Assembly (NCBI GenBank): GCA_022385805.1
Contig: MU277705.1
Location: 62,001 to 126,000, forward strand
Length of the DNA: 64,000 bases
Direction: 5' to 3'
From: Pilatotrama ljubarskyi
Taxonomy: Eukaryota; Basidiomycota; Agaricomycetes; Polyporales; Polyporaceae
In this document: positions 623-50,881 of the stretch, one piece after another
How positions within the stretch are numbered: the stretch's first letter is position 1
How the letters are laid out: every line of letters begins with the position of its first letter
Notes under the pieces: generated by a model
What the model was told of the DNA's origin: nothing
What the model saw: only the letters and a program-made list of their open reading frames with translations
Databases searched by the model: none
Program-made: the position numbers and the translations under genes

Positions 623-2599
623 ATGCACTACGATTTAGAAAGTCCCAGAGGCTCGTCCTCTCACATATGGTACAGTACATTCCAGCCGCTGAACGGTCCT
701 AATCCATCTCCATCCGCGTTCAAGCAGGTCATGGCGCTCGGTGTTGGAGAGGTGTTACTCAAGGAGGTGAGTATCCGACACTATAGTCTTCCTCCCTGGG
801 CAATGAGTGAGTACCTCGGAATGCTCATATCGTTCTGCAGGACCCCGACAAGAAGCATGATATCAAGCCTTCGGTGGCCCCGGATCTGTACCCGAAGTCC
901 CACCTGTCCGGAATGGTAGGTCTGGTCTGTCATCTATCATGGGCTCTTCTGTGCGTTCCGAAAGGCTGATAGTACGATATTCCCCAGATTGTCGATGAGA
1001 AGAAAGTTCATTTCGGCCTTCGAGTCTCTCAACCACCAGCCCCTGAAAACGCCTCGGCTGTAAGTGCTGCGGGAGATTGCCTCCGGACATGCTTCAATAA
1101 GCGCTAACACGACTTCCAGGGCCCTGATGTCCCCAGCAATCTCAGGGATGACAGTGGCAATGGGCAGGAACCGCCAGCAGGACCTCTCCCTGCTGACGCA
1201 ACAAGTACGCGTCGCAGTCAGGACGGACGTTTACTCCCGTCCGTCGAGGTGGTCCTTCCGAGTTACGCCCAGGTCAAAAGGATGAGGATTCAGGCATCTC
1301 GGGCGCAGGAAAGCGAAAACGAACGGCGTAGGTCAGGCTCAGCAAACATGTCCTCGGCCGACCGACCTATGGTCTCGGTTAAGGCGGAGCCTCGCGATGA
1401 TGCCGATTCGAAACCGCTTCTGGACCTCGACAAGCTTGACCCGCTCAGGATCAAAGAGGTATTGCGTGCTGCCGTTGAGGATATGAAGAACGTAAGTGAG
1501 CACTCGGGGCCTGAACTCGAAAAGTGCATCGAACGATTGAAGACCAAGCCATTCCATATACAGCCCGACATCAAGGTAAAGGCAGAGATGCTCAGCGACG
1601 AAGCGCTCCTCGACGCTCTTACGTGGGAGGGTATGAACTATCGCTATCCTATCCCGGTCCCTCCGGAAATCGCCAACTATCCGCTACGTCGCGACTACAT
1701 ATCCAATCTCTACGGAGGGAATATACAGGAAACCGCGCCCAGACCCAGGAAAGATCTCCTTGAGTGGCATGGTTTGGACGACTGGTTCTTTTTGAGCCTG
1801 GACTACAATCCGCACGCACCCCAGAAGCCCGGTTTTTCTGGCTTATTCTTCGGAGGGAATCACTCGGGGGTGCATGTTGAGCGCACTTTCGTGAGGATGG
1901 CACCAGGGAGGTGGGTCTATATGGGGCAGTACAGGGTCGAACCAGGCAAGGCTCTGAGCAGAGAGGCGTGGCATACCCTCACGCCCAACGTAAGCATTCA
2001 AAGGGCCTCCGCAATGCTTGCCAGGTGTGTCCCGCTTGCTCATTCTATCGCAGGTGCGACGCACTTGGGCGAAGGGTATCCTCGGCAAGGAATGGGGCGT
2101 TGACCGGTGTATCAACATTTGGTTGAAACGAGGAAAGGAAATCGACTGGGAACCTAGCCAGGACGAATGGGAAGATGCAGCACTGAGGATTAAAGAGATC
2201 AGGAACGCCCTCTCTGAGGACGACGTGATTGGGGCATTTGACCGCGGAACAGAGGTGCGCGGAGGCGCGAGGCGGGATTTCCTTCACTGACCCTATAGTA
2301 TGTAGGTCCTCTGGACGAGAAGAATGACCTGCGTCGGGTACGATGAGGAGTTTCAGCGCGTGCTCGTCCGTAACGCGGATCGATTCCTGGAAGCGAAGAC
2401 TGTCGGGGGTGCTAAAGGAGGCGCAAAGGGGAAGAGCTCGAAGAGAAAGGCGATTGAGGTTGAGTCCGACTCGGAGATGAACCACCGCTCGATGCAGGGA
2501 TTGGAAAATCGAAGCCGACGACAGCTCGAGCCCGCCAGCCCTCGAGACGCAGACGATCTTGAGAACCGTTCCTTACATAATCTGTCTTCTAGTACATGA
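623..2599 (+). CDS. DUF6697-type conserved protein A (551 aa)
   Basis: Function unknown; the family (DUF6697) is a basidiomycete domain. Exons 623-766, 841-915, 988-1059, 1120-1989, 2054-2254 and 2306-2599 join in phase with canonical GT-AG introns of 51-74 nt. The first 240 residues are polar and probably disordered, with a charged stretch around VKAEPRDD. The family domain follows: GLDDWFFLSLDYNPHAP, then GLFFGGN, then GRWVYMGQYRVEPG, and near the end the motif CVGYDEEFQ. The tail is Lys/Ser/Arg-rich (GGAKGKSSKRKA), which could act in nuclear import (inference). The same ordered motifs recur in the gene at 23626-25491, so this is one of two family members in the window. The ATG at 623 is the first that keeps the frame into exon 2; an additional upstream exon is possible. 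Confidence 0.8.
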
Positions 2600-12202: not shown

Positions 12203-12722
12203 NNNNNNNNNNNNNNNNNNNNNNNNNNNNNNNNNNNNNNNNNNNNNNNNNNNNNNNNNNNNNNNNNNNNNNNNNNNNNNNNNNNNNNNNNNNNNNNNNN
12301 NNNNNNNNNNNNNNNNNNNNNNNNNNNNNNNNNNNNNNNNNNNNNNNNNNNNNNNNNNNNNNNNNNNNNNNNNNNNNNNNNNNNNNNNNNNNNNNNNNNN
12401 NNNNNNNNNNNNNNNNNNNNNNNNNNNNNNNNNNNNNNNNNNNNNNNNNNNNNNNNNNNNNNNNNNNNNNNNNNNNNNNNNNNNNNNNNNNNNNNNNNNN
12501 NNNNNNNNNNNNNNNNNNNNNNNNNNNNNNNNNNNNNNNNNNNNNNNNNNNNNNNNNNNNNNNNNNNNNNNNNNNNNNNNNNNNNNNNNNNNNNNNNNNN
12601 NNNNNNNNNNNNNNNNNNNNNNNNNNNNNNNNNNNNNNNNNNNNNNNNNNNNNNNNNNNNNNNNNNNNNNNNNNNNNNNNNNNNNNNNNNNNNNNNNNNN
12701 NNNNNNNNNNNNNNNNNNNNNN
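12203..12722. other. Assembly gap (520 unknown bases)
   Basis: A run of N inside the transposon. Any frame crossing it is meaningless. The gap probably reflects repeat collapse during assembly, so its length may not be real. Confidence 0.98.
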
Positions 12723-17420: not shown

Positions 17421-17991
17421 GGCTGGTCAGTATGACGAGTCCTTCGTGCCGAGCGTGTACTAGAGGATGTGATCGGGCAGGACTCCTGGCGAAGATAATG
17501 AGGGCAGGAACGGAGAGCGAGATAGCGGTCGTGTCGGCCCACCCCTGATACTTATAAGCAGCCGCGGGCGTCTGTAAGAGCGAGTTCGAATCCGATCCGG
17601 GGCCAAAGTAAGCTATGCGGCTATCATCCCTTCCTAAAGTTTGAATCCGCCTAATTGTTGCATACAATGGAGAGCCCGGCGGCGGAAGAAAGCGGGAGAG
17701 CATGAAGCAGAAAAATGTACTCACAATTTGCACGATTCGCGATCATGTGACCGGTGATCAACGCGTTTCCTCAGCGCGCCGCGCACGGCTTGCCACCGGC
17801 ACCGCTGGAGCGCGTCTGACAACGCTTCAGTTCTATTACTGTCCAACTGTGTGTCACGCTCATATGCACGTCCAGGTACACGGGTCATGGGCTATTACCT
17901 ACATAACATGGCAGACATACAACAGACGGGGACGTTCGACCTGACGTAGCATACAATCGCATAGCAACTGCTATTTTCCTACCCGCAGATA
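17421..17991. other. Intergenic stretch, no gene supported
   Basis: 571 nt between the starts and ends of two minus-strand genes. A tRNA-like GTTCGAATCC at 17584-17593 has no matching stem, so I assign no tRNA. Confidence 0.45.
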
Positions 17992-20900
17992 TCAGGCCGC
18001 GCTACCATGGTGGCTACCATGGCCGTTCTGCATCGGCAAAACCGGGCCCAGAGCCTGCCGCAACAACAGCTCGACGCGCTCCCGGTCCTCGCTCTGTCGC
18101 CGCATCTCGTCGCGCCACCGCGCCTCCCGCTGCTCGTATATCGCAGAGAGCGCGCCGAGGCTCCCGAGCGCAGCCTCAAGCGCACGACGGAGGTCCATCT
18201 CCCCGGGAGAGCTCGCTCCGGGGGAGCCATCCGCGGAGCCGTCCGAGTGCGAAGAGAGTCGCTCCACAAGGGACATCCGCTGCGTCTTGCGCGCAGCGCG
18301 ACGCTGGGAGGCGAGAGTGGAGAAGGAGCGGCGTATGTTTGCAAGAGCGGGCGAGCGCGCAAGAGCGGGGTCTTGCCGCAATCCGCGCGACGTGAGCGCG
18401 TGAAGCTTCGTAGAGTGAGAGGGAGCCGCGAGCAGGACGAGCGTCGAGTCGGTCTCTCTATCCAGCGCTTGGAACTGTAGCCTGTGTCAGAACACGAGAC
18501 CAGAGCATTAGGCGCCTCGCTACTCACCGCTTGAACAAGCGCATCCCAGCGCGTATCGAACCTCCTCCGCCTCTTCTGAGGGTTGCTGACGAACGACGGG
18601 TGGAACTCCAGGTCCAACAGATCCTCCTCCTCTCCTTCCTCCTCCTCATCCACCCACTCACCATCATCTTCTCCTCCCGGAATTACACCACTCTCGTCCC
18701 AGGCGCCTACCCCGTTCCCGTTTCCATTTGTGCCACCCGCCTCGCGGACGTACTGGTCGACATACTGGTCCTCCCCCGCCGTGCTCGTCTCCTCCCCGGC
18801 CGACAGCTCCGGGCTCGTCTCCCGGGGCTGCGTGCTGTCCACGCGCGGAGGCGGCTTGACGGCGCGGCGCGCCTGGCCCGCAGGCTGCGGCACACGCACA
18901 TGTCCATTCTGCTCGCGCCTGCGCAGCCCACGCCCGCGCATAGGCGGGGGAGGCAGGTTGACCGGCTCGTGGCTTGGGCTCGAGCGAATGCTCGCCGCGG
19001 CCATGTGCGCGCTCAGCCCTGCGGTTCCGGCACCGGGAACGAACGCCCAGGGGTTGTACCCCGGGCCGGGGTAGGGCGTCGAGGAGGGCGAGAAGGCGGA
19101 CTCGGAGGAGGGCGGCGCGAGCCCATTATTGAGCGCGTAGATCTGCATCTGGAGCGCGAGCTGCTCGCGGATCACCGCAGGGTTATTCATGTCGTAGTTC
19201 GTCGAGGGCGCCGGCATCGGGCCTGAGACGGTCGAGCGCCGGATATGCGTAAACGGGTAGGGGTAGGGTGACCCGATTTGACGCGGCTCGACGTCGGAGG
19301 GCGTGGCGGAGATGAGCGGGGAAGGCGAGGGTGCGGCCGTGTGAGTTTGGGGAGTGGGCGAGACCGGCGCGCCGGGGCGCGCGCTGGCCGAGCGCAGGAA
19401 CGTCTGCAGATAGGACGAGGTCGGGTCGTCGAACAGGCTCTGGAGGTCGTCAGACTGGTGCTCCGAGCCGGGCCACTGGTAGCCAAGTCGCTGGTCAAGA
19501 ATATGGTTCAGCGCCTGCAACCGCGGGTCGTACTGTGGGTGCGGCAGCTGCTGGTGCTGCTGGGAATGCTGCTGCGGGGTGGGCCTTGGAGGCTCGGATT
19601 GCACCTGCTGCTGGGGAGACTGCGATGCGCGCTCGCGCTGTCCGTTCGTGGGCGAGTCGCGGTGATCTCCCCGGAGGCCATGGATCTCTCGTTCGAACAT
19701 GGCGGGGTCAAAGCTCCGCATGCCGAGCTGGTCCGTGGTGCCCCCGCGAGGCTTCATGCGGATCGTCTTCTGGTTGTCGGCGAGCGCCTGGCCATACTGA
19801 GGACTCGAGCCCGGGTATTGGTTCGTGGGGCCCACAAAGGATCCATCGCGCGGCCGTTCAGGGAGATTCGTGGACGGCGAGCGCGGCGTGAAGCCGGCCT
19901 CCGAGTCTTCGCTGCTCTTGTTCTGGTGCAGGCGATCATCGCCTTCTTCGTCATTCAAAGTCTCCTCATCGTCTTCGTCTCGTTGTTCATGTCGTGCGTC
20001 GTAACGGGTACCATGTCCTTCCGGGTATAGGTCTGACGAAGGCGTGGGCGAGCTGTGGTGCCGATCGGCATACTGGGGCTCATCGTGCTCGAACTCGTGC
20101 CCTACGTCTTCTTCGGGCTCCTCCTGCACGGGTAAAGAGCGATCAGGCGGACGCGTCGCCACCGATTGCAAGGGGGGCGTGTGACTGTTGGCGAGCTTCG
20201 ACGTCGCGGGCGGCGTCGACCGCGTGGCCGCCGCGTCTCCTGCTCCCACGTTCGGGACAGGCTTGCGCGTCGGGGGCTGCGCCGTGGGCTGCTGCTGCTG
20301 CTGCTGCTGAGGGGGCTGGTACGACTCCTGGATGTACTGAGTGTACGCCGCGGTGCGCTCGCCGGGGGACGCCATCGGCGTCTGGTACTGCGGCGAGCCA
20401 CGATACTCAGGCGTGCGCGCGTGGCCCTGAGCCTCGCTGACATGCTGCGACGAGACCGTTCCAGAGCGATCCCGCGTCTTCGGGCTCTCGCGTGCACCCT
20501 GCGGCTCACGCTCGCGCTCCTTCTGCCGCTTCGCAGCCTGCCCGACGCTACCGCTGTCAGAGTCCTTGGGCGAAGCACGGTCGGTGGCCCGCACGCGCTC
20601 GACCGCGGGGTCTTTCGCGGGAGCGGTGACGGACGCGGAGACGGAGACAGGGATCGAGTCGTGGCGGGCCTTGACCCGGCTCGACGCCGCGCCGCCTGCA
20701 TAGGCGACGCCGGCGGTGCCTGGGGCGTGTGCGGCGTACTTCCCGTGCTCGCGCTCGAACTCGGCCATGAGCTCCTCGGTGACGGCCCAGTTGTCCTCCG
20801 AGCTGTGGTACTGCGACAGGAACGGTGCGGTCTGGAGCCGGTTGACGGGACGCGGGTGGTGCTGGTTTGGGAGCTGGGAGATAACAGGCTGGCTGTGCGT

Positions 20901-21200
20901 GTGCAGGAGAGGCGGAGGAGTGCCCTGGCGCTCTGCTCCGTGCTCAGACTGGGTGCCGACTTTGCTCGCCACAGGCGAGATGCGGGAGGTGGGCTGGGGA
21001 GAACGTCGGGACTGGTGGGAGGAGGTGGACGTGGTCGGGCTGGGCTGCTGCTGTGCCTGGGGGTACATCATCTGCCCGTTCTGGTTGGCGAGGAGCTGTC
21101 CGACTGAGGGCACGGTGGGCATGGAGTGCGCTTTGATCGCCCTCTGTTTCTCGCGGAACGAGGGCGAAGGGGTCATCTCGCGGGGCGTTATGTTCTGCAT
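17992..21200 (-). CDS. Large disordered Ser/Pro/Gln-rich protein (1051 aa)
   Basis: Unknown. Exons 18528-21200 and 17992-18474 join across a 53-nt intron with a GT donor and the acceptor CTACAG. The first 700 residues are low-complexity: many SP and TP sites, a run of eight Gln near residue 300 and an acidic patch EEEEGEEEDLLDLEF. Just after it lies a basic motif KRRRRFDTRWDALVQA that resembles a nuclear localisation signal followed by a helix. The C-terminus has a likely coiled coil (IYEQREARWRDEMRRQSEDR). Composition suggests a nuclear regulatory scaffold or coregulator (inference from composition only). No catalytic or DNA-binding domain is visible. The start MQNITPREMTPSPSF is the first ATG of a very long open frame. 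Confidence 0.7.
20288..20310 (-). repeat. CAG/CTG trinucleotide run coding polyglutamine
   Basis: Seven consecutive GCT/CTG units on the plus strand encode part of the glutamine run of the 1051-aa protein. Such runs vary in length between strains. Confidence 0.8.
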
Positions 21201-23625
21201 TGGACCTAGATGACGGGGGAGAGCGGATGAGCGATGTGGGAACGCGACAGGAGAAAGAAGCGTCGGACAAGAAGTCGGGATCCGGCCTCAAATAGGACCA
21301 AATGCTTGATAGGCTAAGTCGTGAAGACGTAAGGGCACACAATAAGCAGATCGTCGTGCAGGAGAGGGTATACAATATCAGGACGATCCCGCTCGCGGTT
21401 CAGCCACAACAAGATCGATGCACCGGGTACTTGAAGGAAGAGGTCGGGCAAGCGGGAGGACCGAAGGGTGGCACCTAACGCAGAACAAAGACTCATGTGC
21501 AGGAACCGGACTGCGACTGACCTTGCTGGCTGAGGTGTGCTTGTTGCTTCCGGTTCAGACTGCGCTGCGGAGATTGACTGGGCATAATCTACGGGGGACT
21601 CTGGGAGGCCAAAGTCGCTGGAGGGGGGGATGAGAGCGATGGCACGTCGGAAAGGATAAACACGGGGAGGCGAGGAGATCGCACCTTCATAGGATGTGAT
21701 CCATTGTACTCGCGTTTCCAACGTGGCTGGCGAGTGTGCGGGTACAAGGCGTCCGCCCAGGTCCACAACGAGGTGGGAGGCCGTGTATGGAAAGTCATGG
21801 TTGCCTCGAGGCTGATTACCGCCACCTCGCTCTCTTCGGACCGGTCCCTATATCCAACCCTGCGAGCGGCGCGTGCTCGCCATTCTCCTGCGCTCATATC
21901 CGCTGCCCTGTTCCTTGCTTTCGCATGATTGAGCAGGACACTTGCCGCCGTTGGCCGAGCACATCCAAGTATGCGACAGATACGCGCCGCGCCCCACACG
22001 CTTCCGCGGGCGTCGTACTCCCAGGCTCCAGGGCACGCTCTCTGCGCGTTGCACGATGATGCACTGGTCGGGGCGTGCAGCCTAATCTTCAGATGCTTAT
22101 TCGCCGGTGATATCACTGATAGAAAAGACGGAGAACGCCACCAGAAGCGACACGCTCGGCGGGGGCGCGACTGCAGCAAGTGCGCCTCGCAGCTTTCTCG
22201 ATCCGAGATGACTCGAATTCAATCGATGCGCAAGCGAGGACGGTTGGCAAGTGAAGTGATCCATGAGGGGGTACAAACACGCGGCGACAAGGGTGCAGAA
22301 GAGCGAACGAGTACTCTCGAGGTGGTGGTGGTGGAAAAGCAACGGAGGTAACGCACAGTGATGAGTGGCACTACGACGTCGCGTGCATTCTCGGTGCTGC
22401 TAGAAGAGGTTACACGAGCAAAACCGGTGCAAGACCGGCCTCTACACACAGCGAAGGCAGCAGGCAGCCACCGAGAATTACACCCTTGCTTTGAGGGGCA
22501 GGGACGGGGCGCTGTTGACGCACTTCGGATCGAGAGACAACCTGCTCCACGAGGCAGCAAATGGCAGGGCACGGAACCGAATGTGTGCAAGGTTTGGGAC
22601 GTTGTGTCCGATGAGCACTAACTGACGTCTCGGAAGTGCTACTTGAGAGGACTGCCTACTCGGCCACCGAAGATGCAGCTATTAAAGACATCCGTGAGCA
22701 TTATAGAAGCCCTTTCAGCCGTCCTGGGAAGCTCCGACGAGGCCGCGGCGAGAAGCAGTGTCGACAGAACAAGCAGAGAATGCGCATATGAGAGCAGAAC
22801 GGCGACTTCTAGATTCCGAGCAGCACACATAGCATGATGCCGTAAAACGGACTTACCTCCGGGCTTGCATGACCATGAGAGCAGGGCCACGCCCGAGTGC
22901 AGGCTAGAAGCAGGATTTGGGTGCCTAGTAGCCAAGGCTGAGAGCGTCTTCAACGTAGTAGGACTCCGTGAACGTTGCTAGAAGACTCTCCACTTGCGTC
23001 GAGGGCGATGGGACGTCGCCAGTTCCCCAGATAGCCACCAGTGTCTTGCAGGGTTCCGGGAGGTCGGCGAACTGGCCAGAGCAAGGCGACATGCCGGAAC
23101 AGAGGCTGCATCCCTCCACACGCTTGGAGGAGAGCACACCCATGAGCACAACAGCATGACGAAGAGACCATTGACAGAGCGGAAATGAGGTGTCCAGTTA
23201 CTAGCCGCGACGATGCATTGGAGAACCACGGACGTGAATATACACATGGCCGTCGCGCACCTGAGTACACGGGGAACGGTGCAATCATTTCTACCTCATG
23301 CACCCCGACAAGTCCGCCTGTAGTATGAGAAGACGCTAGCTCACCTAGCTGCAAGAAGACTCCGCCTCGAGGTGTTTCCGTCCTCTGTCGACGTCGATGA
23401 TCATGATGAGCGTGAATGCCACTGAATCATTAATGGTGGTCAGGCCGCTGGCAGCGTGCGAATCGGGGCAAGGGATCTGATCGAGATCCCGCACTTGACA
23501 TCGAAAACGTCGGCCGCGGCAGCCACTGCTACTCGGTCTCGATTACGTCCACGTAGCCGGCATGTTGTTATGAGCGAGCGCGGACGAGGCAGGCGTACGC
23601 TTCATCTTTCAAGAGAAGCACCATC
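21201..23625. other. Intergenic stretch, no gene supported
   Basis: About 2.4 kb. Minus-strand frames at 21314-21766 and 21589-22179 are long enough to notice but overlap each other, lack motifs and have no linked splice sites. A minus-strand run of hydrophobic frames at 22640-23350 might be a decayed membrane-protein gene; I cannot connect the pieces. Confidence 0.35.
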
Positions 23626-25491
23626 ATGAAGTCGGACGTAGGTACCCTTGAGGACCTCCTCAAGGCCAATGCCGCGCATATCGCAGAACTGAAGGAGAGG
23701 GTCGCTCTGCTCGAGGGCAAGCTGCTTCTGAAGTCCTCTGTAGAGGAAGATTCTAAGGGTGCTGTGGTAGGTGACATTTGTGCCTCAGTCGAAACTCTAT
23801 GCTCATGCCACCGTACCAACATAGACTAGCTCTTTGCATGCACGCTCGGCCGCTTCGACTATGATTGATCTAAAGACCGTCGCCTCGCTAACAGCGGGCA
23901 CCAGAGACCAGCCATGGGAGCTCTCCGACTCCGATGACGAGCAGAAAGGATCCAAAGCCTCTACGAGTGCATCTCACTCAGCCAAGGCCGCTCTCGTTGA
24001 GCCAAGCTCTCGCAACATCGACGCGGACGTGATCGAGTCAACAGTCTCTGATTCTGAGTTCATGCTGGCTGAACAGGAGAACGTCCCTGTGACAAACATG
24101 CGTAAGCGTGGTCGTGCGGGATCGCTACCCTCTCTAGGAGCGCCTTCAAGTGTTAGCATTGGAGAAAGTGCTGGTCTTTCTGCCAGCTCATCGCGGAAAC
24201 ACCGCAAGTTGAATCATGCAGGTGCGTCCCGCAGTTTACTGAGTGTAGAGGGGGCTAAGCAAATATGCTTTGCTTGCAGATGACCCGGACATGAAACCAT
24301 TCTCTGGTGGGCCCAAGTCAGAACATGTCGAGTCCGTGCTCCCGGATATCGAACCGGTACATCATACTCGCACCAAGAAATATGCGAACTTGTTACCAGA
24401 GGTCAGTAGGGCTCTAGGATGTGGAACGTGCGCTGAACCATTGTTGTTAGTCTCACCTTAAGGTAGAAGAAAAAGTCGACCAGGTTCACGAGGTACATGA
24501 GTTCGATCCCGAACTCGAAGCGCCCCCAGTCGCTCCCAACAAAGAGGAGGAACATCTTCCTAATTCTCTAGACAAGCACCAAGTTGCATTGGCCAAATTG
24601 GCGAATGTTCGTGTGTCTCATTCAAGCTCAGGCGTTTCACTGAAAAAAAGCCCGCTTCCATGCAGCCGAAAGCAGAGATCAAGAAGGAGTTTCTGTTGAA
24701 GGACGAGGATGTCCTCCAGCTTCTCCACCCCGACGCCCTCCAGCCATACCCAATCACCCTCTCCGGAAAGCTCCGTTCCGTCACTGTCACCCGGCGCCAG
24801 CTTTCCAAACGTTACGGCGGCAGCGAGATGGATACTTTTCCCAAGCCCGGCGCCAAGAAACGCACAGAACATGGATACGACAACTTCATGTGCATCAACC
24901 TTCTCTGGAACCCGAACGCTCCGCAGGTTCCGGGCCACGGCGGGCTGTTCTTCGATACTTCTCTCCCCGGGGATCCATGGACGCGCAGCAAGTATCATTC
25001 GGAGAGGCAGGTCCTCTTTGTGAGGCTGGGGGATGCAAAGTGGTTGTACCTGGGGCTGTACGAGGTCAGCCCAGCACCGTCGCTGACTAGTGCGCAGTGG
25101 CGAAGTCTTCCTGACGCGGTAAGTTGGAGTCGCATGTATCTTCCCACTTCCGGTCGGCTCATGTTTTGTAGGTGCGCGCCGTGTGGACGAAGAACATCTA
25201 CCAGAAAAATTGGGGTAAGAGCACCCGGGCCCGCATACACCTTCGCCGCACTCTTGGTCGCGAGCCCACCCACGACGATGTGGAACGTGCGCAGGGCGAC
25301 TTCAAGGACGTCACCGAGGAGCAGATTGGGGAGGCGTTGGCTGCCGGCCATGAGGTATTCGAGTATCACTACGTTGGGAAGAGGAAAACGTGCTGACAGG
25401 TGTTTGACAGTGTATCTGCACGTGGTCGATGAAGTGTGTGGGCTATGATGAGGAGTTCCAGCATGAACTCATCGATTTGGCGAGGAACTAA
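23626..25491 (+). CDS. DUF6697-type conserved protein B
   Basis: Paralogue of the gene at 623-2599; function unknown. Supported exons: 23626-23766, 23825-24221, 24280-24401, 24463 to about 24650, then to 25118, 25172-25354 and 25411-25491. It begins with a likely coiled coil (LEDLLKANAAHIAELKERVALL), followed by a disordered acidic/Ser-rich part. The family domain shows YDNFMCINLLWNPNAP, GGLFFDT, AKWLYLGLYEVSPAP and, at the very end, CVGYDEEFQ as in protein A. The intron before the last exon sits at the same codon (GAG) as in A. Between 24580 and 24660 the frame must shift: either a poor-donor intron from about 24583 to 24626 restores it, or one A is missing from the A7 run at 24643-24649, or the gene is broken. 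Confidence 0.72.
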
Positions 25492-26468: not shown

Positions 26469-28464
26469 TCAATCGACATCCTCCAACCCGCCAAACCCAC
26501 CGCCGCCTCCAAATCCGCCGCCGAACATCTGCCCGAACGCACCCCCGAACAGGCCCCCGCCCTGCGCGCCAGGACCTCCCCCGCCCCCTCCTCCGCCTCC
26601 TCCGGCTCCAGTTCCGGGTGGTGGGGGAATTTGGCCCGTGTAGAAGTGGAAGAGCGGTGCCGGGGCGGGGGCGGCAGGTTCGAGCGGCGGGGGAGGCGTT
26701 TCGGGCCTGCTCCCGGGCTCGTCGTCTTCGTCTGCTACCGTGGGGGGCGCGTACGTGGTGGCACCGGGTGTTGTCGAGGTGGACGCTGCGGGAGGGGGTG
26801 TCCCTGTCGACGATGAGGACGCGGGGGTGGAGGAAGAAGACGAAGCGGCGAGCCCGCTCGCCGCTTCCGCAGCCGCGCGGCGCTTCTGCTCGGTCTTGGC
26901 GAGCGCGACCTTGCGGCGCTGCACCTTGACGAACGCGGAGAGGGCGTCGACGGCGTCGACGAGGTACTGCTTGCTCGGCTTGTCCGCAAGGCGGCCAATT
27001 AGGTCCTCCACGACGTCGCTCGCGCGCAGGAACGGCATCATCTGCACGACCTCGCGGTACACCTTTAGGAGGACGACCGCGCCGGCCTTAATCGTCACCG
27101 CCGTGTCCGTCCAGCCCTCGAAGCGCTGCTTCAGCCGCGGGCGGAACTCGTCCCGCAGATCCTCCATGTCCGGGTCGGACGGGTCGAGGTCGAGGTACCC
27201 GAGCGGGTCCGCGTCCTCGGTGCCGTCCATGGCGGGGACGATCGGCAGGCCCATGACCATGGCCGCGATCGCCATCGGGTGCGGCGCCTGCAGCCCGGGG
27301 GTGGAGACCGCGTCGACCCAGCGCTCGACGCGGTCCTGCCGGCCGGGCGCGGCGGTGCGCAGCTTGACGATCTGCTCGATCTCCGCGCGGTTCTCGGGCG
27401 CGTCGAGCTGCGAGAACGGCCCGTGGAGCGCGGCGTGCACGCAGCGTGCGGTGTCGAGCAGCTCGCGCTCGAGGAGGGCGAGCGCACGCACGTGGTGCGC
27501 AGGATTCGTGGCCATGCACCCGACGGCAACTTGCAGGATGGGCACGTCCCGCGGGCGGATCAGGTGCGCGTGCGTGCGGAGGAGCGCGGCGATCGCGTCC
27601 GTGTTGTTCTCGCGCGCGTAGATGTCGAGCGCGGCGGCGAACATGTCGGGGCACGACGTCGCCATCTCGTCGAGGAAGCGGAGCAGCGCGGCCTCGGTCG
27701 CGCCCGGGTCGGGCGATTCGTGCAGGAGCGCGGTGTAGAGCGCGAGCGAGGGCGCGACGTGGAAGACGGCGGTCATGGCGGCGAGGACGTGCCGCCGGAA
27801 GAGCGGGAGCTCGGCGAGGATGCGCGGGGACCAGTGCTTGGCGCGCACGGGCGTCCCCATGACGGTGACCTTGGGGAGCCAGTCGGCGTGCGAGATGGGG
27901 CCGTCGAGCGCGCTGTCGTCGTCCGTGTACGCGTCCTCGTCTTCGTCGATGTCGGACTCGCTCTCGATCGCGAACGGGTCCGCTTTGTAGTCTGGATCGG
28001 TGTCGTGCACACCTGTCGCTGCAGCGTAAGCGGCCCGCTTAGAACAACGGAGGGTTCGCGGGACTTACAGTTTCTACCTCCGTAGAGGATCCTCTGAAGG
28101 GCGTTCCAGCCCATGAGGTCCTCGATATCGTCGAGCATCTCGGGGATCTTCTTGGTCTGGCGCGGGCTGCCGAAGGCGAGGAGGCTGAGGAAGAGGTCGC
28201 GCCAGATGAACTGGAGAACCTCTTCGATGTTGTGGGCGCCGCTGAGTTCCCACGATTTGACGACCTTGCCGGATCTTGCCTTGAGGGTTATCGGGACGAA
28301 CATGCTCGAGAACGCACATCGGCAGCTGCAGATAGTGGTCAGAGCGTGACCCTTGCGGGGAGTATTGAGATGGCGAAAAGCAATGTCGCTGTGCGGGTAC
28401 TGACGCAGCGCATACACCGAAGAGTGGGGTTCGAGCGGTCGCCCGCGCAAATCGGACACAGCAT
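26469..28464 (-). CDS. Unknown helical protein with Gly-rich tail (615 aa)
   Basis: Exons in order of translation: 28418-28464, 28069-28325 and 26469-28012, phase-consistent. The N-terminus MLCPICAGDRSNPTLRCRC has four or five closely spaced Cys that might bind a metal, though it is not a standard MYND or RING pattern. A helical body follows (VVKSWELSGAHNIEEVLQF, IWRDLFLSLLAFGSPRQ), then an acidic stretch (DIDEDEDAYTDDDS), then more helices with ARM/HEAT-like texture. The last 120 residues are Ser/Pro/Thr-rich and finish in poly-glycine (LFGGAFGQMFGGGFGGGGGF). I do not recognise a family with known function. The GC content at third positions is high, as in neighbouring genes, which supports it being a real gene. 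Confidence 0.72.
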
Positions 28465-34814: not shown

Positions 34815-36645
34815 TCAGGCGCGGCTGCGGGATCCGGAGCCGTGGCGGCGAGCCTCCAAGCCCTGAGAGACGGTCAGTTGAAAATGAAGACCGGGATCAA
34901 TGAGTAAACATACGCTGCGGCGGCTGTTCGGGCTCTCGTTGCGTCCGCGGGAGTTGGAACCATGACGGCGAGCGTCGAGCTGTCAGGGCAGGTCAGTACG
35001 ACGTCGATAGAGATTCTTACTGAGAACATACATCGCGGCGTGCGTGGCTATTGCCTCGACCGCGGGAGTTGGAACCGTGGCGGCGAGCTTGAAGGTCCCT
35101 GGTGATGCGAGAGCGGCTTCCGCTTCGGCCGCGGGAGCCAGAGTCGTGACGACGAGCTTCCAACTAGGCATATCGAGTCAATACTCCCGTATGCTGGGAG
35201 ACATTCCATGAAACATACATCGCGACGACCACGAGAGCCGCTGCGTCCCCGAGAACCGGAGCCGTGGCGGCGAGCTTGGAGCTATTGGCACTTCGTTAGC
35301 AAGGCTAGTCCTGAAGCCAGTTGTTGCCGATGCACGGAAGAACTCACATCGTGACGAGTCCTACTCTCGCCACGGCTTCGGGAGCCAGAGCCGTGGCGGC
35401 GCGCCCCCAGGGTGTTTCCGGACCGACTGCCGCTACGTCCGCGAGAGCCGCTGCCGTGGCGGCGTGTCTGCAGCTAAATTGTACATCAGTGGCAGTCGTC
35501 TACCTCGGTTCCGAATGAATGTGTACATACCCCAGAGGCCCTCCGGCTCCCACTGCGGCCGCGTGAGCCAGAACCATGACGACGGGTCTCCAGTGCCCTG
35601 GTAGAGCGGCTTGCGCTACGGCCACGAGAACCGGATCCATGGCGGCGAGCCTCGAGCGACCTAGTGCTACCAGAGCGACTACCGCTGCGCCCCCGAGAAC
35701 CTGAGCCATGGCGGCGCGCTTCCAGGGACCTCACGTTGGCGGAACGACTCCCGCTACGCCCGCGAGAGCCCGATCCGTGGCGGCGAGCTTCGATGGCCCT
35801 GACATTCGCGGAGCGATTGCCACTCCGTCCGCGCGAGCCTGAGTCGTGGCGACGCGCTTCGAGCCCTCTGACGGTGGCAGACCGACTTCCGCTTCGACCA
35901 CGCGAACCAGAACCATGGCGGCGAGCCTCAAGCGACCTGACGTTGGCAGAGCGGCTACCGCTGCGCCCACGAGAGCCTGAGCCGTGGCGCCGAGCTTCGA
36001 GGGACCTGACATTGGCAGAACGACTCCCGCTCCGGCCTCGAGAACCGGAGCCGTGGCGACGGACTTCAAGGCCTCTCACAGTAGCAGAGCGACTGCCACT
36101 GCGGCCGCGAGAACCTGATCCGTGACGGCGAGCCTCGATTGCCCTCACATTTGCAGAGCGACTACCGCTGCGGCCACGGGAGCCCGAGCCGTGGCGGCGA
36201 GCTTCAATGGCCCTCACGTTGGCTGAACGACTGCCGCTGCGGCCGCGAGAGCCTGAGCCATGACGGCGAGCCTCCAGTGTCTGTGGGAGCCGACTCAGCT
36301 GTTCGTACTTTGCACCCCAATAATGATATGGTTTTACCTCACGGCGGCCCCTGCTGTCGCCACCGCGTCCACGGCTTCCAGAATTACCGTGGCGTGGGTC
36401 ACGGGCGAGAACGCGCACAGAGCTCCGACCCCGAACCGCAAAGTCAACCCCAGTGGCGGTGATTCCTTTGTCGAAGAGGGCATCCGTGCCGGAGACAATG
36501 TCAGAATCAGGAAGCTGATAGGTTGTAGTTTAGAGACTATACTGAGTTACGGAAGCATTTAACCAACACTCACAGGAATGGCAGAGACCGCAGAGGAGAG
36601 AACGGCGGTGATGACGAAGACGACGAAGTTCTTCTTGAACTGCAT
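34815..36645 (-). CDS. Secreted Arg/Gly/Ser tandem-repeat protein, candidate kexin-processed peptide precursor (477 aa)
   Basis: Unknown protein. Exons in order of translation: 36574-36645, 36338-36514, 35531-36280, 35348-35473, 35219-35281, 35032-35163, 34914-34979, 34815-34862. All are multiples of three, so every intron is phase 0. Residues 1-22 form a signal peptide (MQFKKNFVVFVITAVLSSAVSA). An acidic pro-region follows (LPDSDIVSGTDALFDKG). From residue 84 come 18 modules built on ARRHGSGSRGRSGSRS with a short linker ending in [LI]-[EQD]-A. The first 11 are near-perfect 23-residue units in one exon; the last seven are degenerate and separated by introns, several just before the ARR motif. 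Each module has Arg-Arg at a fixed place, suiting Kex2 cleavage into about 18 basic peptides (inference). The protein has no Cys in the repeats and almost no aromatic residues. An uncleaved secreted RGG/RS-like polymer is the alternative. Confidence 0.85.
34820..36279 (-). repeat. Coding tandem repeat, 69-bp unit, 18 copies
   Basis: The period is 69 nt in the main block (about 35,590-36,279) and is broken by introns further toward 34,820. Copies differ mostly at third codon positions (for example CGTCATGG against CGCCACGG for Arg-His-Gly), so the protein repeat is better conserved than the DNA. Confidence 0.93.
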
Positions 36646-36762: not shown

Positions 36763-36770
36763 CTTTTATA
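36763..36770 (-). promoter_or_regulatory. TATA box of the repeat-protein gene
   Basis: TATAAAAG on the minus strand, 118 nt upstream of the start codon at 36645. Clear TATA boxes are uncommon in this window and usually mark inducible or strongly expressed fungal genes. Confidence 0.6.
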
Positions 36771-47941: not shown

Positions 47942-50881
47942 AACTACTGGTGCATGCTCAATAAAACAACAACGCGGATATACACGGCGAGGTGCACTGA
48001 TGGCATACACTTGAGCGATGTAGCGATCCAGGAACATCCGTCATCACGGGCAACCCGACTTGTGGACGACGCGACGCGTTTCCTACTCGTTTCCGTGGCA
48101 AAGAAGGCCGAAGACCGGGTACTTCGTGGGACGCTCTCGCGTTGGACGCGCGAAGGCGTTCAGATTAATGGCCTTCGGTCAGTTGGACAAGGGAGAGCTT
48201 CTGTCCGGCTGCGCATTCATCTAATAGTCATACGTTATAGGTACCGCTTCCTTGGGTTCACCGAGGCACAGGTGAAGGCTGGAAAGCTCATGTTCTTCCG
48301 CGAGGATCATGAGTGGACCGTTGAACGCCTACTGAGCGACTTCGGTGACCTTACTGCTGTGTACCTCAACTCCGGATACGGGAAATACTGCGCACGCCTT
48401 GGACTATCCTTCTCCGCCACGGTAGGGTCGCTTGATGTATGCCAATTACAGTGCAGGATCTAGAAGGAATGTACTCACCGCTCTCACAGATACCGGCCGA
48501 GGCTGCTCTTCGGATACCCGATCTGAAGGCGCACGACGGTTCTTTGCACACTGACGGCTGCGGGATGATCCGCGATACATTCGCTGCACAAGTCTGCAGG
48601 AAGTATGGACTGCCCTCTGATACTACAGGCTTGTGCTCCCATTTCTCAGTATAGTCCCTGTCATAATCTCCCTTCTAGTCTTCCAGATCCGCCGCGGAGG
48701 CGTCAAGGGACTGCTCGTGCGATACCCAGACAACAAGTTCGAGCGGCTCTGCGGAACACAGTCGCCAAGCCACTTGATAGCTTATCGACCCTCCATGCAC
48801 AAGTACGAGGGCGGCCCGACTGTACTGGAGATTAACAATCACAACGCTTCTCCTGTGCCCGCTCGCCTTAACATCCACTTCACCGTCCTGTTGTTGTCTT
48901 TGGGAGTACCGCCCCAAGCCTTCCAGCGCCTCCTGCAAGACACCTTGGATGTCATCGGATGCATCGATACCGACAGAGAGAAAGCGCTGCAATACATCAA
49001 GGGCGAACTCGATGCAGGTCTAGAGGATGACTACAATCAGAGCCGTGAGAGGCCGTCTAGCACTCTGCTATGTGACGGCGTACTCACGACGACCTTCGCG
49101 CCCAGTATACGCTATGCTGCTGGCACAGCAGGACCTCTTGGAGCCGTACGTGAAGTTTCGACTTCGGCAGTTCCAAAAGACGCAGTACGAAGGCTTGAGG
49201 AAAAAAATGAACCTACGGGTTATGGACTCCTGCTATTTGTTTGGTGTAGTCGACGAAGACGGCGTACTCGGTCCGGACGAGGTGTACATCAAGCTCCCGA
49301 ACCGCAATGGCGTGCTTGTACGAGACGTCATAGTCGCCAGGCAAGTGTCGCCTTCACAGGATCCCAGCTTGCAGTATCTGATGCAACTTCCAGGAATCCC
49401 GCCTACTACCCCGGAGGTAAGCATGGCACGCGTATATTCTCATCTGCAGCTGACGTGCTTTGTAGATATCCGCAAGCTACGAGCTGTAGATCATCCAGTA
49501 CTGCGGCATCATCGTGACTGCATTGGTGAGTTTGACGGGTCATCTGTCCGTTAGAGCCAATGTTTAGCCACATCGCAGTCTTCTCTCGTAGCGCAGCGCA
49601 CTCGGTCCCAGACACAATCGCGTCAGGGTACGGTGATTCCTCGTGACTTACAATTTGGCATTGCTTAACAGTTTGCCGTCTCCCAGTGATCTTGACGGCG
49701 ATACGTACTTCGTCGCGTGGGAGCCGACCCTGATCCCTCCAGGGGAGATACAGCCTCTCAACAGAGCTCCTGCTTTGTCCGCAGCTTCTCACGGCGTCAC
49801 TGCGCAACAGGCCGGCCTACGCAGGCCTTCCGACATGCCTTCGGCAGCTGTTAACACCTTCGTGAACATGAAGTTCAATCGCTTGTTGGGACGCATGGTA
49901 AATGAATGGAAACGTCAAGTCGAGACGACCCCACTGCTGGCGAACGCGGAGTTCCCACGGCAACTGGTCCCTCTCATTGAGTCTGCTTTGGTATGTGCAT
50001 ACTCACCTCGGCGTGTATACCTAATCACTCACCTCCGATCAGGACATCATGAAGACCGGAGAGGACTTCGCGAAGCTCGAAGCGGACTTTCGTGCGCTTT
50101 GTGCGAGTTACTCGGTTGTGCACCTTGACCGTTTCGTCAGCCCGCTCGAGGTTCTCCGACGGATGATACCAGAGGTAGAGGCCTCTTCCCCGAGGGCGCT
50201 AGAGTGCGACTCTGCCCTTGTTCTGAGGGATGAAGATCCCCGGTTATGGCAAGAGTACATCGCCGAGGCCAAGAGGGTGATGCCACGCTATAACCAGGAG
50301 CTTTCTGGCGCTATCGAATTAGACCGTGAGAGTTCCAGCTGTAGGTCCTTCCTTCGACGTACCTCCCCACCGATCGTGCTCAGTACTGCTTTGCGCAGCC
50401 GACTTCTCGTCCCACTCACGCCCGGATCCGTACGATCGGGAAACCAAACATGCGGATCGACTGAAGCGGGAGTATCAGAGTCGTTATTTTGGAGGTCGGC
50501 CTTCCGTTCATTCCGGCCGTCGTCAAATCATTGACCTGTGTGCCGGGATCGCGCAATAGGAGGAACGCGCCAGGAGTACGAACGCCAGCGACTCAGGGCC
50601 TCCGCTTGGTGCGTGAAACCTCGCCATGCGTTAAGGAAACAGCTAACGGAGGTTTCGGCAGGTATTACTTCGGCTACAGTCGCAACAAACCCTCTTTTGC
50701 ATGGCTTGGAGAACGGTATCTAAATGAGATGAAGGCTTGTGAGTCATGCGCTTGCGGTCTCTCTTCTTTGTATGCGGGCGTCGCTCAGACCGACGACAGT
50801 GTGGTCAAACGGAGGCCGACCCGTGGTATACGTGGGCGCGCGCAAGGGCCGACCTTCCTTGCTTGCCCCTCTTGGTCGTAA
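47942..50881 (+). CDS. RNA-dependent RNA polymerase, RNAi type (5' end unresolved, at least 762 aa)
   Basis: Makes double-stranded RNA from single-stranded RNA in quelling and small-RNA pathways (QDE-1/RDR family). Placed exons: 47942-48177, 48241-48421, 48457-48628, 48679-49044, 49106-49340, 49394-49416, 49466-49525, 49579-49627, 49687-49990, 50043-50340, 50399-50494, 50560-50608, 50662-50881. Landmarks: YRFLGFTEAQVKAGKLMFFRE, YGKYCARLGLSFSA, VKGLLVRYPDNKF, RVMDSCYLFGVVDEDGVL, RNPAYYPGDIRKLRAVDHP and the catalytic SGDLDGDTYFVAWEP (consensus DxDGD). The C-terminus reads RLRASAWYYFGYSRNKPSF, then AWLGERYLNEMKA. The two metal-binding Asp regions are intact, so the enzyme looks active. The final 48 codons after MKA may be replaced by another exon. 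One or two introns appear to use GC-AG. Confidence 0.88.

What the first reader, a model, noticed from the sequence alone, without database searches (positions are those of the whole stretch)
34815..36645. Secreted 18-repeat basic protein that looks like a kexin-processed peptide precursor
Seen: a signal peptide, an acidic pro-region, and 18 modules each with Arg-Arg at the same position, preceded by [LI]-[EQD]-A and followed by HGSGSRGR-like sequence. Established: fungi encode secreted precursors (for example Ustilago Rep1 and the dikaritin RiPP precursors) in which Kex2 cuts after dibasic sites between repeats. Inference: cleavage would release about 18 nearly identical Arg/Gly/Ser peptides of about 20 residues. 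The cores lack Tyr, Cys and Trp, unlike dikaritins, so a cyclised RiPP is unlikely; an antimicrobial, signalling or cell-wall-binding peptide is more plausible. I know of no named family with this core.
Basis: partly seen in the sequence, partly recalled or inferred. Interest (0 to 1): 0.9.

Follow-up and report, generated by a model that had tools for sequence, protein, structure and literature searches.

The report
Mushroom precursor of repeated arginine-rich peptides
A wood-decay fungus carries a gene for a secreted protein made of 18 near-identical arginine-rich units that is probably cut into small peptides, and relatives of this unnamed and unstudied gene occur in mushrooms of at least five orders.

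Summary
On the minus strand, 36645 to 34815, eight exons joined by seven short phase-0 GT-AG introns encode 477 residues with a signal-peptide-like start and 18 RR-H[G/D] modules. Among nine 23-codon modules pS is 0.66 and pN/pS 0.106, so selection keeps the protein sequence. The window matches Pilatotrama ljubarskyi; the deposited model of this gene (P0009) skips most of the repeats and reads another frame. Relatives occur in 11 further named genera; five Agaricomycete orders in all. [quoted passage not shown] No UstYa match lies on its contig, so a dikaritin is unlikely. Caution: relatives have two dibasic sites per module; the one closer to published Kex2 preference, RR|[DE], precedes only 3 of 18 modules here, and cleavage is unproven. 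Best reading: an unnamed, conserved KEP family releasing linear, hydrophilic, cationic peptides that act at the hyphal surface or on neighbours. That function is inference. Novelty: new member of a known kind.

The parts
36763..36770 (-). TATAAAAG, putative TATA box 118-125 nt upstream of the ATG
   Evidence: only exact match on either strand of the window, 0.26 expected by shuffles, 20 of 100 shuffles had one or more; role inferred
36574..36645 (-). exon 1: start codon and signal peptide MQFKKNFVVFVITAVLSSAVSA-IP
   Evidence: splice model; M-x-F-[KN]-x-x-F start in 13 of 30 sequences examined
36338..36514 (-). exon 2: pro-region (first part acidic, then VRGRSSVRVLARDPRHG) and a first, diverged unit ending RGRR-E
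   Evidence: RGR[SN][PS] motif in 19 of 30 sequences
35531..36280 (-). exon 3: TLEARR then the main repeat array
   Evidence: AlphaFold2 of this exon alone, mean pLDDT 39.9
35642..36262 (-). nine successive 23-codon modules, HGSGSRGRSGSRSANVRSLEARR type
   Evidence: 69-nt period, pN/pS 0.106; end coordinates counted from the exon 3 start
35348..35473 (-). exon 4: two modules
35219..35281 (-). exon 5: one module, ends RGRRD
35032..35163 (-). exon 6: two modules, ends HARRD
34914..34979 (-). exon 7: one module, ends NSRRS
34815..34862 (-). exon 8: last half-module HGSGSRSRA and stop
34863..36573 (-). span of the seven introns: 36515-36573, 36281-36337, 35474-35530, 35282-35347, 35164-35218, 34980-35031, 34863-34913; 51-66 nt, GT-AG, phase 0; the last six all lie just before the [LI]-x-[AT]-RR element of a module (with one extra residue, T or G, in two)

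Best explanation
The gene encodes the precursor of a KEX2-processed repeat protein (KEP), one member of an unnamed family conserved across Agaricomycetes. The signal peptide takes the chain into the secretory route; the unfolded chain is cut in the Golgi by kexin after Arg-Arg; a KEX1-type carboxypeptidase trims the C-terminal Arg. The products are linear Arg/Gly/Ser peptides that start His-Gly (HGSGSRGRSGSRSANVRSLEA type here; HGSGSRGRGDSRG or HGDSHG in relatives), with an acidic [DE]-L-[ED]-A spacer removed where both sites exist. They most likely act outside the cell as soluble cationic peptides, at the hyphal surface or matrix or on neighbouring organisms. Shown here: gene structure by computation, repeats, purifying selection, family conservation, presence of a kexin gene. 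Inferred: secretion, cleavage, trimming, activity. The confidence is for the KEP part; for the surface/neighbour role alone I would give about 0.3.
For: Splice model with seven phase-0 introns. pN/pS 0.106 among modules at pS 0.66. Relatives with the same start, RR-H-G cores and, in 19 of 30, the RGR[SN][PS] pro-motif. Arg precedes the core His at 91 of 92 sites in 30 related, partly near-identical sequences, RR at 69. Cutting at KR/RR after the signal peptide gives 24 fragments, longest 60 aa, ten of them 23-aa units covering 48% of the protein, which meets the repeat criteria quoted in PMC6339444 and PMC7329392. Kexin gene in the genome: P domain, open frames, best PDB match yeast kexin E 4.9e-71. 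S10 carboxypeptidase-family genes present, none identified as KEX1. Exon 3 predicted without fold, mean pLDDT 39.9 from a single sequence. Vogt 2022 saw RR-cut peptides from a Coprinopsis KEP made in Pichia.
Against: No RNA or peptide evidence. RR pairs are fewer than composition alone gives (21 against 28.0 +/- 3.9). At RR|H sites P4 is acidic in 45 of 55 and P1' is His; Bader 2008 reports acidic and small residues at P1', P2', P4' of cleaved yeast sites. RR|[DE] precedes only 3 of 18 modules here. In Mycena the core His follows Pro-Arg, not RR. Only one P-domain match was found here, whereas Vogt 2022 states three kex2 genes for C. cinerea and other agaricomycetes. No function is shown; the six kep knockouts and the synthetic peptides of Vogt 2022, other KEPs, gave no phenotype or antibacterial effect.
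Confidence: 0.65

Rival explanations
1. The protein is secreted but stays mostly uncut: an unfolded, strongly cationic repeat polymer that coats the hypha or binds acidic matrix, the RR being part of the charge pattern.
For: Precursor net charge +90 by K+R-D-E; RR not enriched over composition; unsuited P4 and P1' at RR|H and few RR|[DE] sites; within this gene Arg 6 and Arg 8 of the core are as constant as the RR.
Against: RR before the core His is kept where the core shrinks to HGDSHG and the spacer changes (LEARR, LTKRR, LGKRR, ELDARR); most relatives examined keep two RR sites per module; unfolded chain and RR make cutting likely.
Confidence: 0.22
2. A RiPP precursor whose cores are cross-linked or otherwise heavily modified.
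For: Dikaritin precursors share signal peptide and dibasic repeats (introduction of PMC9769878); 14 UstYa matches exist in this genome.
Against: None of the 14 lies on contig C36; no Tyr, Trp or Cys. The search is exon by exon, so a divergent enzyme could be missed; only 20 of 200 ORFs of the window were tested against Pfam.
Confidence: 0.05
3. A host- or prey-directed effector or toxin released as many copies.
For: Some KEPs act so (candidalysin, Ustilago effectors).
Against: Family occurs in genera of different habits (lifestyles recalled); cores are Arg/Gly/Ser with almost no hydrophobic residue. Not tested.
Confidence: 0.05
4. Not a repeat protein at all: the deposited model (BV20DRAFT_1054009, 223 aa, mostly another frame) is right and the repeat frame is chance.
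For: P0009 maps to this gene piece by piece, three residues unplaced.
Against: It needs an 821-nt intron, against 51-66 nt for the seven. In the array the coding-strand repeat frame gives pN/pS 0.106 and no stop, the other two coding-strand frames 7.1 and 4.1 with stops. The repeat frame is the one conserved in relatives.
Confidence: 0.03

Closest known systems
KEX2-processed repeat proteins (KEPs; Le Marquer 2019, Umemura 2020, Vogt 2022)
   Same: signal-peptide-like start, at least three repeats between dibasic sites, linear unmodified products expected
   Different: this core (His-Gly, Arg/Gly/Ser, no aromatic residue) is not described in the sections read; the basidiomycete motif named there is XSDW and the widest type G-1 is called Tyr-rich; the supplementary tables were not open to me
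Ustilago maydis Rep1 repellents
   Same: basidiomycete precursor cut by Kex2 into many similar peptides that act on the hyphal wall (passages)
   Different: Rep1 peptides are 37 aa long and form amyloid-like fibrils; these cores are shorter and almost without hydrophobic residues
Dikaritin RiPP precursors (ustiloxin type)
   Same: signal peptide plus dibasic-flanked repeats
   Different: no UstYa match on the contig, no Tyr or Trp
Ascomycete alpha-pheromone precursors
   Same: repeated peptide released by kexin
   Different: no X-A/X-P STE13 dipeptide follows any of the 23 RR here (contexts)

Membership tests
KEP | signal peptide for secretion | tested here: inconclusive
   typical start by eye, conserved start in 13 of 30 sequences; SignalP was not available
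KEP | Le Marquer: KR/RR cutting gives at least 4 fragments, at least 3 similar, repeats at least 15% of the protein | tested here: met
   24 fragments, ten of 23 aa = 48% of 477 aa (criteria). I did not run their FIMO pipeline
KEP | Umemura: at least 3 tandem repeats of at least 8 aa between Kex2 sites, none over 100 aa | tested here: met
   18 His-starting fragments of 9-23 aa, longest fragment of any kind 60 aa (criteria)
KEP | actual cleavage by kexin | not testable with these tools
   kexin gene present; site context partly unfavourable
Dikaritin | UstYa/DUF3328 gene near the precursor | tested here: not met
   14 matches in the genome, none on contig C36; exon-wise search
Dikaritin | aromatic core residue for cross-linking (recalled) | tested here: not met
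   0 Tyr, 0 Trp
Alpha-pheromone type KEP | STE13 dipeptides X-A/X-P after the Kex2 site | tested here: not met
   23 RR contexts printed, none followed by X-A or X-P
Rep1-type repellent | surface-active, amyloid-like peptides | not tested
   cores are Arg/Gly/Ser, net +2 to +3 by K+R-D-E for the Polyporales types, which makes it unlikely; no assembly test

The most novel reading that the evidence does not exclude
A family-wide way to make free peptides with an N-terminal His-Gly: kexin cutting after Arg would expose His as residue 1 of each core (Arg precedes that His at 91 of 92 sites). An N-terminal histidine is a natural copper chelator, known from the histidine brace of LPMOs (abstract starts seen). 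Some cores carry a second His (HGDSHG in Psilocybe). The precursor would then be a multi-copy source of small secreted metal-binding peptides in decay mushrooms. No metal binding was tested, and this species' own cores have a single His in most modules.
Probability: 0.08. Interest if true: 0.8.

Novelty: new member of a known kind. Interest (0 to 1): 0.45.

Why it matters
Umemura 2020 states that most KEP types occur in a single genus, and for mushrooms Vogt 2022 found no function for any KEP examined. A KEP family found in five Agaricomycete orders, with no second copy seen in this genome and with strong purifying selection on the module, is a good candidate for a general role in mushroom biology, testable with existing peptidomics and knockout protocols. 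It also shows how such genes escape surveys of predicted proteomes: the deposited models of this gene and, by my reading, of P0001-P0004 and P0030 leave the repeat frame part-way.

Tried and rejected
Paralogues in the same genome: queries with the N-terminal part, the repeats and P0004 found only this locus (the tool calls such counts lower bounds). P0020 gave one weak hit on C19 and missed this locus (E 2e-4, 51% over 49 aa); the ORF list around it shows a His-rich frame against a longer Ser/Thr-rich one and no signal peptide or LEARR element, so I took it as chance.

Pfam: no family at E <= 0.1 for the window protein and P0001, P0004, P0006, P0015. PDB: nothing at E <= 1 for a 67-residue repeat query. 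Rfam: nothing at gathering score in the window. AlphaFold2: exon 3 only, single sequence, mean pLDDT 39.9, so no fold search was made.

Literature by motif: searched core strings; 438 and 556 papers matched at least one term, 20 of each were listed, and the listed rows are accidental matches. In those 40 rows EARRHG, ARRHGSG, HGSGSRG, HGDSHG, RRHGD, HGDSRGR and GDSHGRR occur zero times; the unlisted rows I did not see. One search listed 15 of 18 papers, one search listed 4 of 4. The metalloprotein paper PMC12537917 holds no mention of Kex2 or propeptide in its main text (passages).

The antisense ORF 35580-36122 (+) as the real gene: rejected, it mirrors codon wobble (antisense frame 1 pN/pS 0.18 with one stop in eight units, against 0.106 with none in nine).

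Full report
Gene model. The minus strand from 36645 to 34815 carries one spliced open frame of 1434 nt including the stop, 477 residues, in eight exons. The seven introns are 51-66 nt, GT-AG, phase 0. A TATAAAAG lies 118-125 nt upstream of the ATG on the same strand, the only exact match in the window with 0.26 expected. The protein starts MQFKKNFVVFVITAVLSSAVSA-IP, has a pro-region that is first acidic and then basic, and 18 modules with RRH[GD]. It has no Tyr, Cys or Trp.

Not chance. Nine reference-length copies stand at exact 69-nt spacing; the eight others are 64-78% identical to the reference copy in DNA. The protein of the nine 23-codon modules is nearly constant: pS 0.66, pN 0.070, ratio 0.106, no stop. 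The other two coding-strand frames give 7.1 and 4.1 with stops; antisense frames give 5.0, 0.18 and 3.1. The 0.18 belongs to the antisense frame that shares the wobble position, which explains the 181-aa antisense ORF. RR pairs as such are not in excess for so Arg-rich a chain: 21 in the array against 28.0 +/- 3.9; 84 of 2000 shuffles had as few or fewer.

Species and annotation. The window is G000:C36:62001-126000 of a 33.1-Mb, 173-contig genome without a name. P0009, Pilatotrama ljubarskyi BV20DRAFT_1054009, comes from a contig of 288,519 nt, the length of C36, and its pieces map exactly to this gene apart from three residues at exon joins. So the organism is, by inference, that species. The deposited model shares intron 1, skips 35616-36436, then reads other frames with breaks near my introns 3-7. 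It misses most of the array and misreads the rest. By my reading P0001-P0004 and P0030 also leave the repeat frame part-way.

Family. The full protein found five relatives, a five-sequence profile 17 hits, a nine-sequence profile 25, each at E <= 0.001 and each with only the ~8000 candidates sharing most words scored. In all 30 distinct proteins, one of them (P0009) this gene itself. Named sources give 12 genera, Pilatotrama included: Cubamyces, Trametes, Lentinus, Steccherinum, Sanghuangporus, Gymnopilus, Psilocybe, Mycena, Paramarasmius, Sphaerobolus, Ramaria. Nine species were looked up and fall in Polyporales, Hymenochaetales, Agaricales, Geastrales and Gomphales. Weak members: Gymnopilus P0005 (1.3e-4; not in the other two lists) and Paramarasmius P0030 (1.4e-4). 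Of 30 sequences, 13 have the start M-x-F-[KN]-x-x-F, 19 have RGR[SN][PS] in the pro-region, and 13 have an RR-flanked spacer of the [DE]-L-E-A kind; fragments and broken models account for part of the misses, but Steccherinum, Sphaerobolus, Psilocybe and Mycena lack the pro-motif as I searched it. Several relatives show what I read as a retained intron directly after RRD, the place of an intron in this gene.

Anatomy of the module. In Lentinus the unit is RR|HGSGSRGRGDSRGRR|DLEARR, in Psilocybe RR|HGDSHGRR|ELDARR, in Sphaerobolus RR|HGGDSHGRR|DLEARR. The general plan is thus a His-Gly core and an acidic spacer, each followed by a dibasic. In this gene the nine 23-codon modules lack the second dibasic; RR|[DE] occurs three times and RR before something other than His five times. 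Over 30 sequences Arg precedes the core His at 91 of 92 sites, as RR at 69 and PR at 20; the sequences are related and some nearly identical, so the counts are not independent. Mycena has PR at both of its sites.

Processing. A kexin gene exists: one P-domain match, on C9, open frames that read as kexin, best PDB match yeast kexin at 4.9e-71. Sixteen S8 matches in the genome were not sorted into kexins and others. S10 carboxypeptidase matches are many, none identified as KEX1. Vogt 2022 (PMC9769878; abstract, introduction, two of three parts of the Results, discussion) saw RR-cut products of a Coprinopsis KEP in Pichia, native KEP peptides in four mushrooms, no phenotype of six kep knockouts and no antibacterial activity. 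Bader 2008 (PMC2515848; passages) reports acidic and small residues at P1', P2' and P4' of cleaved yeast Kex2 sites. In 14 sequences, at RR not followed by His, P1' is Asp or Glu in 25 of 37 and P4 is Arg, His or Lys in 34 of 37; at RR|H, P4 is Glu or Asp in 45 of 55. This counts against simple full processing in this species and is why I keep the uncut polymer as a serious rival.

Not a dikaritin, not an alpha-pheromone type. None of 14 UstYa matches lies on the gene's contig, there is no Tyr or Trp, and no X-A or X-P follows RR. AlphaFold2 of exon 3 alone gave mean pLDDT 39.9, so a folded repeat domain is not indicated, within the limits of a single-sequence model.

Neighbours. The next gene upstream on the + strand looks like replication factor C subunit 1 (BRCT, AAA/Rad17 and RFC1 C-terminal matches). 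Twenty ORFs of 200 were tested against Pfam; no peptide-modifying family appeared among the matches.

Comparison with print. The repeat criteria of both KEP screens are met (Le Marquer 2019, PMC6339444, abstract, four sections and passages; Umemura 2020, PMC7329392, abstract, two sections and passages). The conserved basidiomycete motif named in the sections read is XSDW, and Umemura's widest type is called Tyr-rich; neither fits. I saw no paper that names these cores in the listings; supplementary tables were not open to me.

Verdict. Real, conserved, unnamed, of a known kind. The function is open. Occurrence in fungi of different habits (recalled) argues for the fungus's own surface or matrix, or for defence, over a host-specific effector; this is inference.

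Noticed in passing
window 17982-21287 (-) and 26472-28064 (-): Stop-to-stop frames of 1102 and 531 residues with high GC3 (0.78, 0.87) and no Pfam match at 0.001.
   Followed up: no
window 12203-12722: Run of N, an assembly gap or withheld stretch; the flank to its left looked transposase-like by eye, not tested.
   Followed up: no
G000 contigs C15, C19, C40, C20: 14 UstYa exon matches: six on C15, five on C19, two on C40, one on C20; possible dikaritin-type clusters elsewhere in this genome.
   Followed up: no
window 35580-36122 (+): 181-aa open frame antisense to the array, a by-product of the repeat's codon pattern.
   Followed up: yes
window 48621-49514 (+): Match to eukaryotic RNA-dependent RNA polymerase PF05183, E 8.9e-15.
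   Followed up: no
window 1108-2100 (+) and 24564-25445 (+): Two matches to DUF6697, E 2.7e-28 and 7.4e-29.
   Followed up: no
G000:C36:159835-164843: Four S10 carboxypeptidase exon matches on the gene's own contig, about 34 kb beyond the window end.
   Followed up: no
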